From an uncultured Desulfobacterales bacterium (GTDB lineage: Bacteria > Desulfobacterota > Desulfobacteria > Desulfobacterales > UBA11574): a stretch of DNA of 43,053 nucleotides. Below are positions 12,619 to 18,594 of the stretch, in pieces; positions within the stretch are counted from its first letter, which is position 1; every line of letters starts with the position of its first letter. A program made the translations under genes and the position numbers. The stretch spans positions 1 to 43,053 of the forward strand of contig CALLDL010000110.1 in assembly GCA_937998305.1 (NCBI GenBank). Reading direction: 5' to 3'. The notes beneath the pieces were generated by a model. That model saw nothing but the letters and a program-made list of their open reading frames with translations, was not told the origin of the DNA and ran no database searches.

Positions 12619-14349
12619 ATGACCAGTAAAATTATTTTAAAAGATGCTTTCAAGCGTTTTACGCTGGACCAGGACAAGATATTGCCACCCGAAGAGACGG
12701 TTATCCGCTTTAAAAATAAATTGAAAAAAGTTGATCTTGATATCCTTGAATATACGGTAAGAATCGATAAAGGGAGATTGGACCTCCCGGTTTATTTCAG
12801 CAGTTGTGGCAGAGATGCCATCGAAATAATCGGAACGAAAAAGCAGATGGGAAAAGGTGCTACACCCCATCAGGCTGAAGCAAGCGCTGTTATGGAACTG
12901 GCTGAAAGGTTCAGTTTTTTCAGTTTTTGCAAAAATCCCGAAAATTTTTTTGTTGAAAAATATTGCAACCTTAAAGAAAATGTAATCCCGTTTGAGATGA
13001 TTGCCCAATCCGTCCACGACAATTCAGAAGATCTAAATATCTCAAGAAAAATATTTGAAGACCTGCCGCTAAAGTGGACAAAGGCGTTTAATTTAACCCG
13101 AAATCAAGAAATTCTTATTCCTTTTAATTGGTTCTATACGATTAATGAATTCAATGGTCCATCTGCCGGCAATTGTGTGGAAGAAGCCCTAAGCCAAGGC
13201 ATCTGTGAAATTGTAGAGCGACATGTATCTTCGATAATCAGTCAAAACCACTTAAAAGTACCTGCAATTCGGGCAAATTCAGTAACCGATCCAATGGTTA
13301 TTGAAATGATAGGAAAATACAGGAAAGCCGGGATTAGCATATTCATTTCAGATTTTTCACTGGATATGGGAATACCCAGTGTCGGTGTGCTGGCATATGA
13401 CCCCTCGACGTTTCCGGAAAGAAGTGAAATCGTCTGGACAGCCGGAACAACACCTGATCCGGAAAAGGCGTTAAGCCGGGCACTTACGGAAGTGGCTCAG
13501 CTTGCCGGAGATTTTGATACTGCCTCCAAATATGTGGCCAGTGGTCTTCCCAAACCGACGAAAATTGAAGACGCCGAATTTATCATCAACCCCGGAGAAA
13601 GAATCGATATTAACACGCTTCCCGAACTTTCAAACGAAAATATTAAAATTGAAGTTGAAAACTGTATATCTGCTTTGGCAAAAAAGGGTATGGAAGTGAT
13701 TGTGGTGGATACCATGCATTCCCTGCTTGATATACCGGCTTTTTATACCATCATACCCGGCGCTCATTTCAGGGAAAGATCTCTTGGAACCAGTGTGGGG
13801 ATGTTTTCAGCCAAAATTATAACCGAAAATCAAACGCCTCATGTTGCCATTAAAGAACTTAAAAAAATCGAACGTCTACTTCCGACAAGGTATTATATTA
13901 AATTTTACCTCGGATCATGTCACCTCGCCCTCAATGATCCTGCAACAGCGCTGGGATATTTTACACAGTCTCTTGAACTTGATCCTACAGAACAGGATGT
14001 GCCCAGCATCTATTCATACATGGGTGTCTCCTTCAATGAGATGGGTGAATATCTGAAAGCGCTTGATGTATTAAAAAAGGCTGAAACGCATGATAACGAA
14101 AGAACGGATATTTATAACTCAATGGGCTTCAGCCATTTTAAACTCAAGGAACACGAGCAGGCCATAGAGTGTTTCAAAAAAGTGTTGCAGCTCGACCCGG
14201 GTTCCGCCATCGATTATGCCAATATTGCCACAAATTACAGGGATATGGGGCAAAAAGAAAAGGCCATACAATATTATGAAATGTCACTGGCCATGGACCC
14301 TTCAATAGAGTTTGCAAGAGAGAATCTTTTGAAACTGGGCCAAAACTAA
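12619..14349 (+). CDS. YcaO domain protein with C-terminal TPR repeats
   Basis: YcaO enzymes use ATP to activate amide backbones, forming azolines, thioamides or similar modifications. This 576-residue protein has a YcaO domain at about residues 40-400. ATP/magnesium-binding acidic motifs are visible: S89xxxE93 within KGATPHQAEASAVMELAERF, E189xxxQ193xxxE197 near GNCVEEALSQGICEIVERH, and E291 in RALTEVAQL. Residues from about 425 to the end form roughly four tetratricopeptide repeats. The overall plan and length resemble E. coli YcaO rather than the RiPP cyclodehydratases, whose C-terminus is usually proline-rich. No TfuA, E1-like partner or precursor peptide gene is beside it. It is a single-gene unit, convergent with parA. 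The domain call is firm; the substrate is unknown. Confidence 0.85.
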   Translation: MTSKIILKDAFKRFTLDQDKILPPEETVIRFKNKLKKVDLDILEYTVRIDKGRLDLPVYFSSCGRDAIEIIGTKKQMGKGATPHQAEASAVMELAERFSFFSFCKNPENFFVEKYCNLKENVIPFEMIAQSVHDNSEDLNISRKIFEDLPLKWTKAFNLTRNQEILIPFNWFYTINEFNGPSAGNCVEEALSQGICEIVERHVSSIISQNHLKVPAIRANSVTDPMVIEMIGKYRKAGISIFISDFSLDMGIPSVGVLAYDPSTFPERSEIVWTAGTTPDPEKALSRALTEVAQLAGDFDTASKYVASGLPKPTKIEDAEFIINPGERIDINTLPELSNENIKIEVENCISALAKKGMEVIVVDTMHSLLDIPAFYTIIPGAHFRERSLGTSVGMFSAKIITENQTPHVAIKELKKIERLLPTRYYIKFYLGSCHLALNDPATALGYFTQSLELDPTEQDVPSIYSYMGVSFNEMGEYLKALDVLKKAETHDNERTDIYNSMGFSHFKLKEHEQAIECFKKVLQLDPGSAIDYANIATNYRDMGQKEKAIQYYEMSLAMDPSIEFARENLLKLGQN

Positions 14350-14390: not shown

Positions 14391-14562
14391 TAGTGATCTT
14401 CCATAAATGAGGATTTTTGTTTAATATCAAGGCATGCGAAAAAAATAACCGCAGGTGCCCCGCAGGAAATGCCCTTGGGGTGCATATGTGTAATATTCCG
14501 AGGATTATTTTTTAAGCATAACTCAGAGATTGGGCAAAAAGACCATTTATGGATGGGCACTA
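14391..14562. repeat. 172-bp dispersed palindromic repeat, copy 1
   Basis: The ends are degenerate inverted repeats (TAGTGATCTTCCATAAATG left; TAGTGCCCATCCATAAATG right, read on the minus strand). The core GGTGCCCCGCAGGAAATGCC, followed by CTTGGGGTGCAT, forms a strong hairpin, and outer arms AAAATAACC/GGATTATTTT extend it. It lies between the convergent YcaO and parA genes. Its right end contains the last four sense codons and the stop codon of parA. Copies 2 and 3 are at 21049 and 25752. Confidence 0.85.
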
Positions 14563-15338
14563 GATAGCAATTCTTTGGCAAGACTGGTGTAGTCTGACGA
14601 ACCATAGCTGCCTTTCCTAAAGAAAACCACAGGTTTTCCAACACCGGCACTCTCGGCGATGGTGGTATTACTTCTTATCACCGTGTTAAAAAGCATATCA
14701 GCATATCTTTCATCATTTTTCAATTTTTCCAAAATATTATGACTGATCCGGGTCCGCGTGTCAAATAGTGTCGCCACAATCCCGGTCACATTTAGGTCTG
14801 TATTAATATTTTCCTGTATAGCAAAAATGGTGTCAAAGAGTTCGTCCAGTGCACCATAAGCATACGGATGTGTCTGGCATGGCACAACAACCTCTTTAGC
14901 ATATGCCAACACATTTACGGTTAACAATGAAAGACTTGGGGGTGTATCAAGAAATATGAAATCATATTTCCCGGCAATGGATTCAAGGGCCTCCTTTAAC
15001 CTGTTTTCACGTCCAATCTTATCAACAAGTTCGATTTCTGCACCGGAAAGATCTACATGGGATGGTATAAGATCAAGCCCTTCCCATCTTGTGGGCATGA
15101 TGACCTCGGCTGCTTTAATCGATTTGCTGTCCATTATGAGATCGTATACGGTCAGCATCTTTTCATCAACATCGACACCAAGCCCTTTTGTCGCATTAAA
15201 TTGTGGATCCATGTCCACAACCAGAACCGTTTTTTCTTCCTTACACAATGCCGCTGCAAGGTTTATCACCGTTACTGTTTTACCGACACCGCCTTTTTCA
15301 TTTGCCACAGCAATGATTCTGGTCCGGCGATCACTCAT
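14547..15338 (-). CDS. ParA/Soj-type ATPase
   Basis: ParA-like proteins are dimerising ATPases that position chromosomes, plasmids or protein complexes. The 263-residue protein has the deviant Walker A motif NEKGGVGKTVTVINLAAAL, the switch region VVDMDPQFNATKGLG, and Walker B FIFLDTPPSLSLLTVNVLAYA. The ATG at 15338 is chosen because AAGGAGGTG lies eight bases ahead; an in-frame GTG three codons upstream overlaps that site. The last residues (SAHP) and the stop codon lie within a 172-bp repeat, so the original C-terminus may have been changed. No parB and no parS-like site is visible. It starts 21 bases after the dynamin-like gene, so the two are co-transcribed and may work together, for example in placing the GTPase at a membrane site. 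Confidence 0.88.
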   Translation of the reverse strand: MSDRRTRIIAVANEKGGVGKTVTVINLAAALCKEEKTVLVVDMDPQFNATKGLGVDVDEKMLTVYDLIMDSKSIKAAEVIMPTRWEGLDLIPSHVDLSGAEIELVDKIGRENRLKEALESIAGKYDFIFLDTPPSLSLLTVNVLAYAKEVVVPCQTHPYAYGALDELFDTIFAIQENINTDLNVTGIVATLFDTRTRISHNILEKLKNDERYADMLFNTVIRSNTTIAESAGVGKPVVFFRKGSYGSSDYTSLAKELLSSAHP

Positions 15339-15344
15339 AATTAA

Positions 15345-15353
15345 CACCTCCTT
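15345..15353 (-). promoter_or_regulatory. Ribosome binding site deciding the parA start
   Basis: AAGGAGGTG on the minus strand is close to ideal and lies just before the ATG at 15338. It would overlap the upstream alternative GTG. Confidence 0.7.
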
Positions 15354-15359
15354 CGTTCA

Positions 15360-17729
15360 TCACTTGTCATTGGTTGTTGGTTGCTCAGATTTCGCGCCCG
15401 TATTTTTATGTAAGTTCATCTTAGATGGTGTTGATAGCGATGAAGGATCATCGCCATGGATTTTCTGAATAGCGATATGCTTATCGGCAGAATCGATAGT
15501 TTCAATCTTTTCTCTAAGACCATTTATTTTTTCGCCCAATTCATTATAATTAAAGGCCATGGTTTTCATCATCTCAGACGCCTGCTCTCTGTCAATAATC
15601 TTGTTGTTTATCAGGTCGACAATACTTGAAAGATCTGCCCTATAAACCTGAAAGCGATCAAGAAGAGTTTCATACAGACTGTTTGATTCGGCCTCAACAA
15701 GCTTGTATATATATTGAAATTTTATGTTTTCCTGATAATCCTTAAGATGAGAGATCACCGACTTCTCCATTTCATGCTTCACGCGTAAAACACCATCTCT
15801 CAATGCAAGTATCTCCCCTTCGTTTTTTCCTTGAATCGGTTTTTTTAATAACCGTTTAAAGATTTTAACCACTTTATAAAGACCAAGACGCATTGTTGCT
15901 TCCGTCTTCATCTTCGCTGTATACCGCATGTAAGCAGCCACAGGAGGAAGTGTTAATCCTGTTATAGATTTTATCGTACTGATATCAGGCAGATCGATCT
16001 TTTTTATGTTCTCGTTGGAGCGGTTTATTCCCAACTTATCCATCATACCGTTATATGTAGCAATAGCATCTTGCACCATGACATCGAATGGGCCTGTAAT
16101 CGACTCGAGATGTTCATGAATACGTGTTTCCTGTTTTGTGACAAAACGAATAACTTCAGGGTTTATGGTTTCAGCCATAAACGTGTCGAAGGCCTGTTTG
16201 AAATCCTGAAATATCTGATAAAGTGTGTTTGAAAAACCCGAAGTCTTAAGATCATCTTCATATTGTTGATACGGAATGGAATAGCTTTTAATAAACTCCG
16301 CGATATCATGTATTACATTTCCTGATCGGATATCAAAATAACGATCGATTTCTAGTTTTAGTTCACGTTTGATCTGTTGAGTCGAGCCATCGAGGGTGTT
16401 TTTTACCACAGATTTAATCTGATTTACCCTAATCTGATGCTTTTTTACATTTTCAACGATTTCATTTGCACTCTCTGTATTCCTTGTAAGAATATTCTGA
16501 TTGAAAGAGATCCAATGCTCTAAGCCTGATGAAATAATATGAAGGCGTTCTATATGATTTTTTAACAAGAGCTCATAACTTCCACGGGTCAGCTTATTGT
16601 AAAAAGATGTTTCAAAACGAGCTGTTTCGGAGTCTGAAAAGGCAGAAAGCTCTTTCTCTCCTTCCCATTGCTCCAATCTCAGCCGATCTTTTAGTAACAG
16701 CGTTAAATTCTGGGCTTTGAACAGATTGAAAAGTGCTGACAGAGAATAAATTTCAGGAGAAGGCGTTATCATCATAAGCTCTTCTTTTACTTTTTCTATC
16801 AAGGCGTCAAGGTCATGTAGCGAGTCATGTTCACTAAAATCACAGTTGATAATAAAGAGAATGTTATCCAAAATCCCCATTTTTTTTATCAATGATAAAA
16901 ATTTTATATCCGCTTCTCGAAGTCCAGTTCTACTGCTGATCACATAGATGATGAGATTCGTTAACAAAAGATAATCTTGAATCATAACCAGGTGGAGGGG
17001 ATTTGGGGAATCACTCCCTTGGCAATCTGCAATTTCGATATTACTTTCAATGCCGCCGGAATCGATTTCCAGATGAACATCCTTCAAATAGACTGCCATG
17101 GTCCCGTCACTCACAAAGTTCCAATGATCCCCAAACAAATTGTCTTCAAACTGCCTTACATTAACTTCGAAGGAAATCAGATCCTTTACTTTCTCAAATC
17201 CTTTAAGGTATGACGATAAAAGGACACTGTTAACATTGCGGGTGCCGTTGGCGATAAGATGTTCAGGCCCCAGAGAAGTCAGTGCTTTTTGAAGATCCAT
17301 TCTCTCTTTTTTATCCCGTATATCAAACTTGTCATCTTCAGTCCGCCAGTCCAATGACGGAAAGAGAGCCAGTGCCTGATCCATATCCGCGTTAATTTCA
17401 TCCCAGGATTTAAACAACAGTTTTGCCCTAAGTTTTTCTCCACTACGAACTCGAGTAACGATAGAAGTAACAACTCCGGCCCCCCGTTTTAAATACTCGC
17501 CCTTGAAAAGTGAGTTGATGAATGTGCTCTTGCCGGATTTGATAGGTCCCACAACGGCGACACGAATAATCTCTTCCGACAATTGTTTGTTAATACTCGC
17601 ATTTGTTTTCTCCCAAACAGCAAAGGAATTGTCTGATATACCGGGTATCGACTTGGCATTGGAAAAAAAGCTTGAAATATCCTCACTGATTTTAAGTAGG
17701 TCCCTTTTAATCGAGTTATAAGTATTCAT
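15360..17729 (-). CDS. Dynamin-like GTPase
   Basis: This 789-residue protein has an N-terminal GTPase domain of the bacterial dynamin-like type. G1 is GPIKSGKST at residues 61-69, G2 a threonine near 88 in the glycine-rich AGVVTSIVTRV, G3 is D235-C-Q-G238, and G4 is N295-C-D297. The GTPase is followed by long helical stretches, with a segment near residues 590-620 (ITGLTLPPVAAYMRY) that could dip into a membrane, and a final helical region. Such proteins bend, tether or repair membranes after GTP-driven assembly. It begins the transcript that continues into parA. A non-coding region rich in repeats lies upstream. I see no clear ribosome binding site before the ATG. The family call is good; the cellular role is not known. 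Confidence 0.82.
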   Translation of the reverse strand: MNTYNSIKRDLLKISEDISSFFSNAKSIPGISDNSFAVWEKTNASINKQLSEEIIRVAVVGPIKSGKSTFINSLFKGEYLKRGAGVVTSIVTRVRSGEKLRAKLLFKSWDEINADMDQALALFPSLDWRTEDDKFDIRDKKERMDLQKALTSLGPEHLIANGTRNVNSVLLSSYLKGFEKVKDLISFEVNVRQFEDNLFGDHWNFVSDGTMAVYLKDVHLEIDSGGIESNIEIADCQGSDSPNPLHLVMIQDYLLLTNLIIYVISSRTGLREADIKFLSLIKKMGILDNILFIINCDFSEHDSLHDLDALIEKVKEELMMITPSPEIYSLSALFNLFKAQNLTLLLKDRLRLEQWEGEKELSAFSDSETARFETSFYNKLTRGSYELLLKNHIERLHIISSGLEHWISFNQNILTRNTESANEIVENVKKHQIRVNQIKSVVKNTLDGSTQQIKRELKLEIDRYFDIRSGNVIHDIAEFIKSYSIPYQQYEDDLKTSGFSNTLYQIFQDFKQAFDTFMAETINPEVIRFVTKQETRIHEHLESITGPFDVMVQDAIATYNGMMDKLGINRSNENIKKIDLPDISTIKSITGLTLPPVAAYMRYTAKMKTEATMRLGLYKVVKIFKRLLKKPIQGKNEGEILALRDGVLRVKHEMEKSVISHLKDYQENIKFQYIYKLVEAESNSLYETLLDRFQVYRADLSSIVDLINNKIIDREQASEMMKTMAFNYNELGEKINGLREKIETIDSADKHIAIQKIHGDDPSSLSTPSKMNLHKNTGAKSEQPTTNDK

Positions 17730-18450: not shown

Positions 18451-18594
18451 ATGTCGGAAAAACATCCTGAATGTCCACTGTATAATCCATTAAATTGCAA
18501 AGAATATTACAATCCCAAGCTCTGCGCATTTGTAAAAAAAGATAAAGTTTGTCTCAAAAAAAAGAAGCCAAAATCCAAAGCGAAATCGAAATAA
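18451..18594 (+). CDS. Small cysteine-containing protein, 47 residues
   Basis: The ORF encodes 47 residues. It starts MSEKHPECPLYNPLNCKEYY and has four cysteines at positions 8, 16, 26 and 34. It ends in a lysine-rich tail (KKKKPKSKAKSK). AAGGAA lies about 14 bases before the ATG, and a TATAAT box lies about 85 bases upstream. Four cysteines in this spacing could bind a metal or form disulfides, and the basic tail could touch nucleic acid or acidic lipids. It seems to resemble short hypothetical proteins of Desulfobacterales, but I cannot verify that. It stands alone between the dynamin-like gene and the AlgH gene. A coding role is likely but not proven. Confidence 0.55.
   Translation: MSEKHPECPLYNPLNCKEYYNPKLCAFVKKDKVCLKKKKPKSKAKSK

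What the first reader, a model, noticed from the sequence alone, without database searches (positions are those of the whole stretch)
14547..17729. ParA-type ATPase co-transcribed with a dynamin-like GTPase
A deviant-Walker ATPase and a large dynamin-like protein lie 21 bases apart, with no ParB, Min or chemotaxis partner. A spatial-patterning ATPase paired with a membrane-remodelling GTPase would be a simple two-protein system for placing membrane fission, repair or tethering. I do not know this pair as a described system.
Basis: partly seen in the sequence, partly recalled or inferred. Interest (0 to 1): 0.55.

Follow-up and report, generated by a model that had tools for sequence, protein, structure and literature searches.

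The report
ParA ATPase, dynamin, hidden third partner
A bacterial positioning-type ATPase is really encoded next to a dynamin in many sulfate-reducing bacteria, but its evolution follows a short tag on a third, unnamed membrane protein that probably binds DNA, which points to that protein as its true partner.

Summary
PAR (14547-15338, minus) is a Soj-like ParA ATPase 21 nt behind DYN (15360-17729, minus), a full-length BDLP-type dynamin. In an even sample of 194 genomes of the order, PAR is in 71 and DYN in 154; they are neighbours in 62 of the 64 genomes with both, and in 15 of 15 where the flanking yqgE has moved away. PAR is not the chromosomal ParA: the genome has a separate parA-parB. 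But it is no closed two-protein system: 90 DYN genomes lack PAR, 7 PAR genomes lack DYN. Loci without DYN led to a third protein, HTM: N-terminal peptide MGKxSLxKST, a DNA-binding-like region (H1-like or helix-turn-helix), one transmembrane helix, unknown C-domain. HTM sits beside PAR, DYN or the pair in several lineages. Its peptide is intact in 36 of 36 PAR-carrying genomes read, including 7 without DYN, but in only 5 of 28 lacking PAR (families: 22/22 against 3/17). I read HTM as PAR's activating partner, as ParB's N-terminal peptide is for ParA, and DYN as the co-encoded membrane effector. PAR-HTM contact is inferred, the DYN step more so.

The parts
14547..15338 (-). PAR: Soj-like ParA ATPase, 263 aa, deviant Walker A (K15, K20, D44). 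Distinct clade, not the chromosomal ParA
15347..15351 (-). GGAGG ribosome-binding site, 8 nt before the ATG of PAR
   Evidence: sequence
15339..15359 (-). 21-nt gap between the DYN stop (TGA) and the PAR start; the two reading frames are in phase
15360..17729 (-). DYN: dynamin-like protein, 789 aa. GTPase domain about 55-340, long helical neck/trunk, tip about 583-605, disordered tail 749-789

Best explanation
PAR is an orphan ParA-type ATPase switch whose conserved partner is HTM, a membrane-anchored protein with a DNA-binding-like N-terminal region, encoded elsewhere in most genomes (here G000:C120). HTM's first ten residues (MGKxSLxKST) are the activating peptide and are proposed to dock in the hydrophobic pocket at the PAR dimer interface that takes ParB's N-terminal peptide in canonical ParA. 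HTM would link nucleoid and membrane. PAR's ATP cycle would control where or when HTM and the co-encoded dynamin DYN gather at the membrane, and DYN would do the membrane work. Shown by sequence: the gene pair and its conservation; PAR's own clade and intact ATPase residues; the hydrophobic pocket; the loss of Soj's DNA-binding arginines; HTM's architecture; the tracking of the peptide with PAR. Inferred: physical PAR-HTM binding, DNA binding by HTM, and any action on DYN.
For: Peptide present in 36 of 36 PAR+ and 5 of 28 PAR- genomes with a readable N-terminus (64 of the 75 fetched, out of 134 with HTM). By family, 22 of 22 PAR+ against 3 of 17 PAR- (p 4.5e-8), and the contrast holds inside families f23 and f115. 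It follows PAR within DYN+ (p 2e-8) and within DYN- (p 3e-4), not DYN within PAR- (p 0.62). M1, G2, L6 and T10 are invariant in 36 of 36. In PAR- genomes that keep a long basic N-region the first residues have drifted. Linkage: PAR-HTM co-directional without DYN (L068, L069, L082/L227, L223, L242); HTM convergent behind DYN-PAR (L061, L064, L065, L075, G375); HTM directly upstream of DYN without PAR (L170). ATPase residues 60 of 60 and the pocket hydrophobic at five of six positions, the sixth mostly Ala. DYN-PAR adjacent in 62 of 64.
Against: HTM is also in 75 of 123 PAR- genomes and was not found in 12 of 71 PAR+ genomes. The peptide pattern was written after seeing the data, 59 of 134 HTM genes were not read, and 11 of the 75 fetched had an unreadable N-terminus. 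On the HTM tree only 3-4 independent contrasts lie on well-supported branches; none goes against, but the test cannot reach significance. Linked arrangements are few and some are related by descent: 4 of 134 genomes in the order sample have HTM near PAR or DYN. Nothing shows contact: the fused DYN-PAR prediction had pTM 0.44 against 0.77 for DYN alone, and PAR-HTM was not modelled. DYN is absent from 7 of 71 PAR genomes. DYN shows no segment that sorts sharply with PAR.
Confidence: 0.48

Rival explanations
1. One reading: PAR and DYN alone form a two-protein system; PAR makes a nucleoid-based pattern that places the dynamin.
For: Adjacent and co-directional in 62 of 64 genomes, kept when the upstream block is rearranged (15 of 15; three loci with all flanks changed). 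Good ribosome-binding site and short gap. Gene distances correlate (r 0.92).
Against: DYN without PAR in 90 of 154, PAR without DYN in 7 of 71 including exact deletions of DYN at the native locus (L222, L225). No PAR-specific motif in DYN. No sign of a complex. The arginine needed for non-specific DNA binding in M. xanthus ParA (R238) is Thr in 54 of 60 PARs, and the neighbouring Soj arginine is lost in all 60.
Confidence: 0.12
2. PAR and DYN are unrelated in function and merely share a transcript kept by descent; PAR works with HTM on nucleoid or membrane organisation, DYN does general membrane maintenance.
For: DYN is older and wider than PAR (33 of 198 in the phylum sample against 4 of 198) and sits elsewhere beside dprA/tgt, RNase Y or GGDEF genes. 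Losses are unlinked, and most correlation of distances is shared descent (partial r 0.36 given YqgE).
Against: DYN-PAR adjacency outlasts that of DYN with YqgE (62/64 against 41/56). HTM is found directly upstream of DYN in a lineage without detectable PAR (L170). In G053 DYN is gone and PAR carries a stop (L148).
Confidence: 0.3
3. PAR is a second chromosome-partition ParA that uses the genome's ordinary ParB.
For: The ParB-binding pocket is largely kept and ParB is present in 59 of 60 relatives.
Against: ParB sits with its own ParA, about 40% identical to PAR. PAR is absent from many ParB-bearing genomes, its DNA-binding arginines are replaced, and HTM rather than ParB carries a peptide that follows PAR. 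ParB's own peptide here is the different VLGRGLDALL.
Confidence: 0.07

Closest known systems
ParABS / Soj-Spo0J chromosome segregation
   Same: ParA fold and deviant Walker A; pocket for an N-terminal activating peptide; a partner with DNA-binding features and a conserved basic-hydrophobic N-terminus
   Different: no ParB; the partner proposed here is membrane-anchored with an unrelated architecture; Soj's DNA-binding arginines replaced; dynamin in the operon
Orphan ParA positioning systems (PpfA, ParC, McdA; review PMC9178275, passages read)
   Same: ParA without ParB, encoded with or near a cargo
   Different: cargo or neighbour is a dynamin; adaptor candidate is a transmembrane protein with H1-like or HTH N-terminus. 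Partner details of those systems are partly recalled
Bacterial dynamin-like proteins (Nostoc BDLP, SynDLP, C. jejuni DLP1/2, IniA)
   Same: full-length BDLP-type fold: 2j69 Z 21.4, rmsd 4.8, 598 residues aligned
   Different: single gene, not the side-by-side dynamin pair described for most bacterial DLPs (PMC6104087, abstract and passages read); followed by a ParA gene
E. coli CrfC, a dynamin-homologue nucleoid partition factor (PMC6374313, abstract read)
   Same: precedent for a dynamin-like protein acting in nucleoid partition
   Different: CrfC model gives only 17.4 bits against a cut-off of 1146; no ParA partner in the abstract

Membership tests
Dynamin-like proteins (BDLP type) | dynamin GTPase motifs G1-G3 | tested here: met
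   G61, G66, K67, T69 of G1, T88 and D235-C-Q-G238 invariant in 46 of 46 aligned sequences; Dynamin_N 50.1 bits over a cut-off of 27. G4 is atypical (N295-C-D297)
Dynamin-like proteins (BDLP type) | full-length BDLP architecture: GTPase, neck, trunk and tip | tested here: met
   AF2 model pLDDT 81.5, pTM 0.77; BDLP 2j69 598 residues aligned, Z 21.4, rmsd 4.8; Foldseek E 1.5e-17
Dynamin-like proteins (BDLP type) | GTP-dependent membrane binding and remodelling | not testable with these tools
   needs protein
ParA/MinD deviant Walker A ATPases | KGGVGKT with signature lysine, catalytic Asp | tested here: met
   K15, K20 and D44 in 60 of 60 PAR sequences
ParABS partition system | own ParB encoded beside the ParA | tested here: not met
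   no ParB beside PAR in the neighbourhoods examined; the ParB of the genome is at C33 with another ParA
ParABS partition system | non-specific DNA binding through the arginine equivalent to M. xanthus R238 | tested here: inconclusive
   that site is Thr in 54 of 60, Ala in 4, Lys in 1, Asp in 1; Arg in 21 of 21 Soj. R195 is kept and R222 and R197 are new nearby, so DNA binding is doubtful but not excluded
ParABS partition system | parS sites | not tested
   no search was made
MinD | C-terminal membrane-targeting amphipathic helix | tested here: inconclusive
   PAR ends at about the same place as Soj, without an obvious extension; no dedicated predictor was run
CrfC | matches the curated CrfC model | tested here: not met
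   17.4 bits against a cut-off of 1146
Orphan ParA system with a peptide-bearing adaptor | an adaptor that activates the ParA through a short N-terminal peptide | tested here: inconclusive
   HTM peptide follows PAR (36/36 against 5/28); binding not tested

The most novel reading that the evidence does not exclude
A three-part machine: a membrane-anchored nucleoid tether (HTM) carrying a ParA-activating peptide, a ParA switch that no longer relies on Soj-type DNA binding (PAR), and a dynamin (DYN) directed to nucleoid-membrane contact sites. It would be a bacterial way to aim a dynamin in space.
Probability: 0.25. Interest if true: 0.85.

Novelty: new variant of a known kind. Interest (0 to 1): 0.62.

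Why it matters
How bacterial dynamins are placed in the cell is largely open, and ParA-type ATPases are the standard bacterial positioning devices. A ParA conserved behind a dynamin, with an unnamed membrane protein whose ten-residue N-terminus comes and goes with that ParA, gives a concrete binding test (a short synthetic peptide on one purified ATPase). It also adds an unnamed protein family (134 of 194 genomes of the order) that looks like a nucleoid-membrane tether.

Tried and rejected
Rejected or unhelpful. (1) Defence-system reading: the best PADLOC hit of DYN is LeoA (29 bits), and PAR's are weak P-loop hits; conserved chromosomal synteny speaks against a mobile defence locus. PHROGs gave only generic ParA for PAR and nothing for DYN. 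(2) A clamp-binding-like QALALF at DYN 118-123 (the CrfC idea): 40 of 68 sequences match a loose form of it, but it lies in a helix of the GTPase region (109-122 in the model) and the CrfC model fails; left open as weak, not pursued. (3) A PAR-specific segment in DYN: the best columns differ only partly between PAR+ and PAR- sets. (4) Fused DYN-PAR structure prediction: pTM 0.44, linker and tail disordered; the tool gives neither PAE nor coordinates, so this is weak evidence. (5) Distance correlation: high (0.92), but YqgE behaves almost the same; the YCAO control had only 7 rows and is uninformative. (6) Presence-only association of PAR and DYN is modest (odds ratio 3.4, p 0.005, no correction for descent); likewise PAR and HTM (odds ratio 3.1, p 0.001). 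(7) First HTM tree had rows cut at the wrong domain; redone, where the careful search did not finish, so the tree used there is not the careful one. (8) In the HTM count G332 has no clear start; it was kept as 'no peptide'. G346 (MQGRKSTQKAT) is a near miss counted as absent. N-termini that run off a contig or into masked bases (11 of 75) were dropped. (9) Literature searches for a ParA-dynamin pair listed none; for an H1-like membrane ParA partner found no paper.
Full report
OBSERVATION. The two genes exist at the stated place. DYN (15360-17729, minus, 789 aa) has a dynamin GTPase domain. Its predicted structure (46-row alignment, pLDDT 81.5, pTM 0.77) aligns over 598 residues with Nostoc BDLP (Z 21.4, rmsd 4.8) and well with SynDLP, mitofusin and IniA. 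PAR (14547-15338, minus, 263 aa) starts 21 nt behind the DYN stop, 8 nt after a GGAGG. Its nearest solved relative is 8ray, which one search finds named in the M. xanthus ParA-ParB paper PMC12462528 (passages and section 8 read).

IS THE PAIR CONSERVED? Among 60 relatives, 51 have DYN, 30 have a PAR orthologue at 63% identity or more, and the next ParA in line is at 42%. In genome contigs, 56 PAR-like loci were found; of the 54 true orthologues DYN is directly upstream in 50, or 51 counting L036, where only a DYN fragment fits on the contig. In an even sample of 194 genomes of the order, PAR is in 71 and DYN in 154. Both are in 64, and 62 of these have DYN then PAR on one strand (61 plus G281). 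As a yardstick, yqgE, the usual upstream neighbour, is next to DYN in 41 of 56; in the 15 where it is not, DYN-PAR is intact in 15. So the link is stronger than general synteny.

NOT A CLOSED TWO-PROTEIN SYSTEM. DYN occurs without PAR in 90 of 154 genomes, often at the same locus (YqgE, DYN, YcaO), and in other classes of the phylum (33 of 198) beside dprA-tgt, RNase Y-YmdB or YcaO-GGDEF. PAR is in 4 of 198 of the phylum sample, one of them outside the order. On the DYN tree the PAR label changes about 11 times, best read as an early pair with many losses of PAR. PAR without DYN: 7 of 71 (G012 at a contig edge; G053, G400, G391, G324, G310, G376). In L222 (G400, 98% complete) and L225 (G324, 98%) DYN is gone from an otherwise native locus and PAR is open; in L148 (G053) DYN is gone and PAR has a stop. 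In G056 and G369 the two genes lie apart.

WHAT KIND OF ParA. All 60 PARs keep K15, K20 and D44. The hydrophobic ParB-peptide pocket mapped in M. xanthus (V116, L150, L152, L155, L187, L192) is I102, L136, L138, V141, A173, I178. The arginine whose change abolishes non-specific DNA binding there (R238) is Thr in 54 of 60 PARs and Arg in 21 of 21 Soj; the neighbouring Soj arginine is lost in all 60 PARs; R222 (60 of 60) and R197 (56 of 60) are new. Mean net charge is -9.6 against -1.6. Canonical nucleoid binding is doubtful but not excluded. The genome has a separate Soj-ParB pair (C33).

THE THIRD PROTEIN. Neighbours of PAR in DYN-less loci showed a shared gene. A profile search of held loci found it behind PAR (L068, L069, L082/L227, L223, L242), convergent with PAR behind DYN-PAR (L061, L064, L065, L075), and directly upstream of DYN, same strand, in L170, a genome of another class without detectable PAR (later G375, and G322 where PAR is missing). 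I call it HTM: N-terminal peptide, then a K/A-rich histone-H1-like or helix-turn-helix region, one transmembrane segment and a C-domain of about 170 residues (the transmembrane and H1-like labels are read from the sequence, not from a predictor). Only weak transposase-type HTH matches appear, with no Pfam family for the H1-like forms and no convincing solved relative (best E 0.065). It is in 134 of 194 genomes including the window's genome (G000:C120) and in 59 of 71 PAR+ genomes.

THE PEPTIDE FOLLOWS PAR. I read HTM in 75 of 134 genomes: the 30 best-scoring, further contexts, and 40 chosen by hand across PAR+ and PAR-; 64 have a readable N-terminus. Peptide (pattern M-x?-G-[KR]-x-[SNTD]-L) present: PAR+ 36 of 36, PAR- 5 of 28 (Fisher 7e-13). 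The pattern was fixed after looking. By family: 22 of 22 against 3 of 17 (p 4.5e-8). Of the three exceptional families (f16, f40, f123), f16 and f40 also hold PAR+ rows in this set, and f123 holds the PAR+ genome G372, so PAR may have been lost recently there. Two families show the contrast inside (f23, f115). Split by DYN: PAR+DYN+ 29/29, PAR+DYN- 7/7, PAR-DYN+ 4/17, PAR-DYN- 1/11. PAR- genomes that keep a long basic N-region often keep only a degraded start. On the HTM tree, contrasts on supported branches are too few (3-4) for significance, none opposite.

MECHANISM. ParB activates ParA with a short N-terminal peptide in a pocket at the dimer interface (PMC12462528, section 8). HTM has the right form: an invariant basic-hydrophobic N-terminus on a protein with DNA-binding features. 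I propose that PAR's ATP cycle is driven by HTM at nucleoid-membrane contacts and that DYN, probably made from the same transcript, acts there on the membrane. The PAR-HTM step is supported by co-variation and some linkage only; the DYN step by gene order only. A one-chain DYN-PAR prediction gave pTM 0.44 and no ordering of the DYN tail.

LITERATURE. Searches for a ParA-dynamin system and for an H1-like membrane ParA partner found none; only open-licence PMC papers are held. The review PMC9178275 (passages) lists orphan ParAs and has no occurrence of 'dynamin'. PMC6104087 (abstract and passages) says most bacterial DLPs come as side-by-side pairs. PMC6374313 (abstract) covers CrfC.

VERDICT. 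A real, conserved gene pair; a distinct ParA clade; probably a ParA-type system with an unrecognised membrane adaptor and a dynamin in the operon. New variant of a known kind.

Noticed in passing
window 18451-18594 (+): Small conserved gene, 47 aa, four cysteines and a Lys-rich tail, between yqgE and DYN on the opposite strand; at the same place in many loci of the order, also where DYN is lost (L222, L225). No Pfam match.
   Followed up: partly
window 12619-14349 (+): YcaO-TPR protein, convergent with PAR; YcaO also lies near DYN in another class, with a GGDEF gene between them (L183, L185).
   Followed up: partly
L154 (G000:C220) and L155 (G000:C4): Two further ParA-like proteins of the window's genome with long C-terminal extensions (about 362 aa); partners not examined.
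   Followed up: no
L171, L174, L179, L181: In another lineage DYN lies between dprA/topA and tgt, a housekeeping context; meaning unknown.
   Followed up: no
L057 (Desulfosarcina cetonica): DYN is split into two reading frames beside an intact PAR.
   Followed up: no
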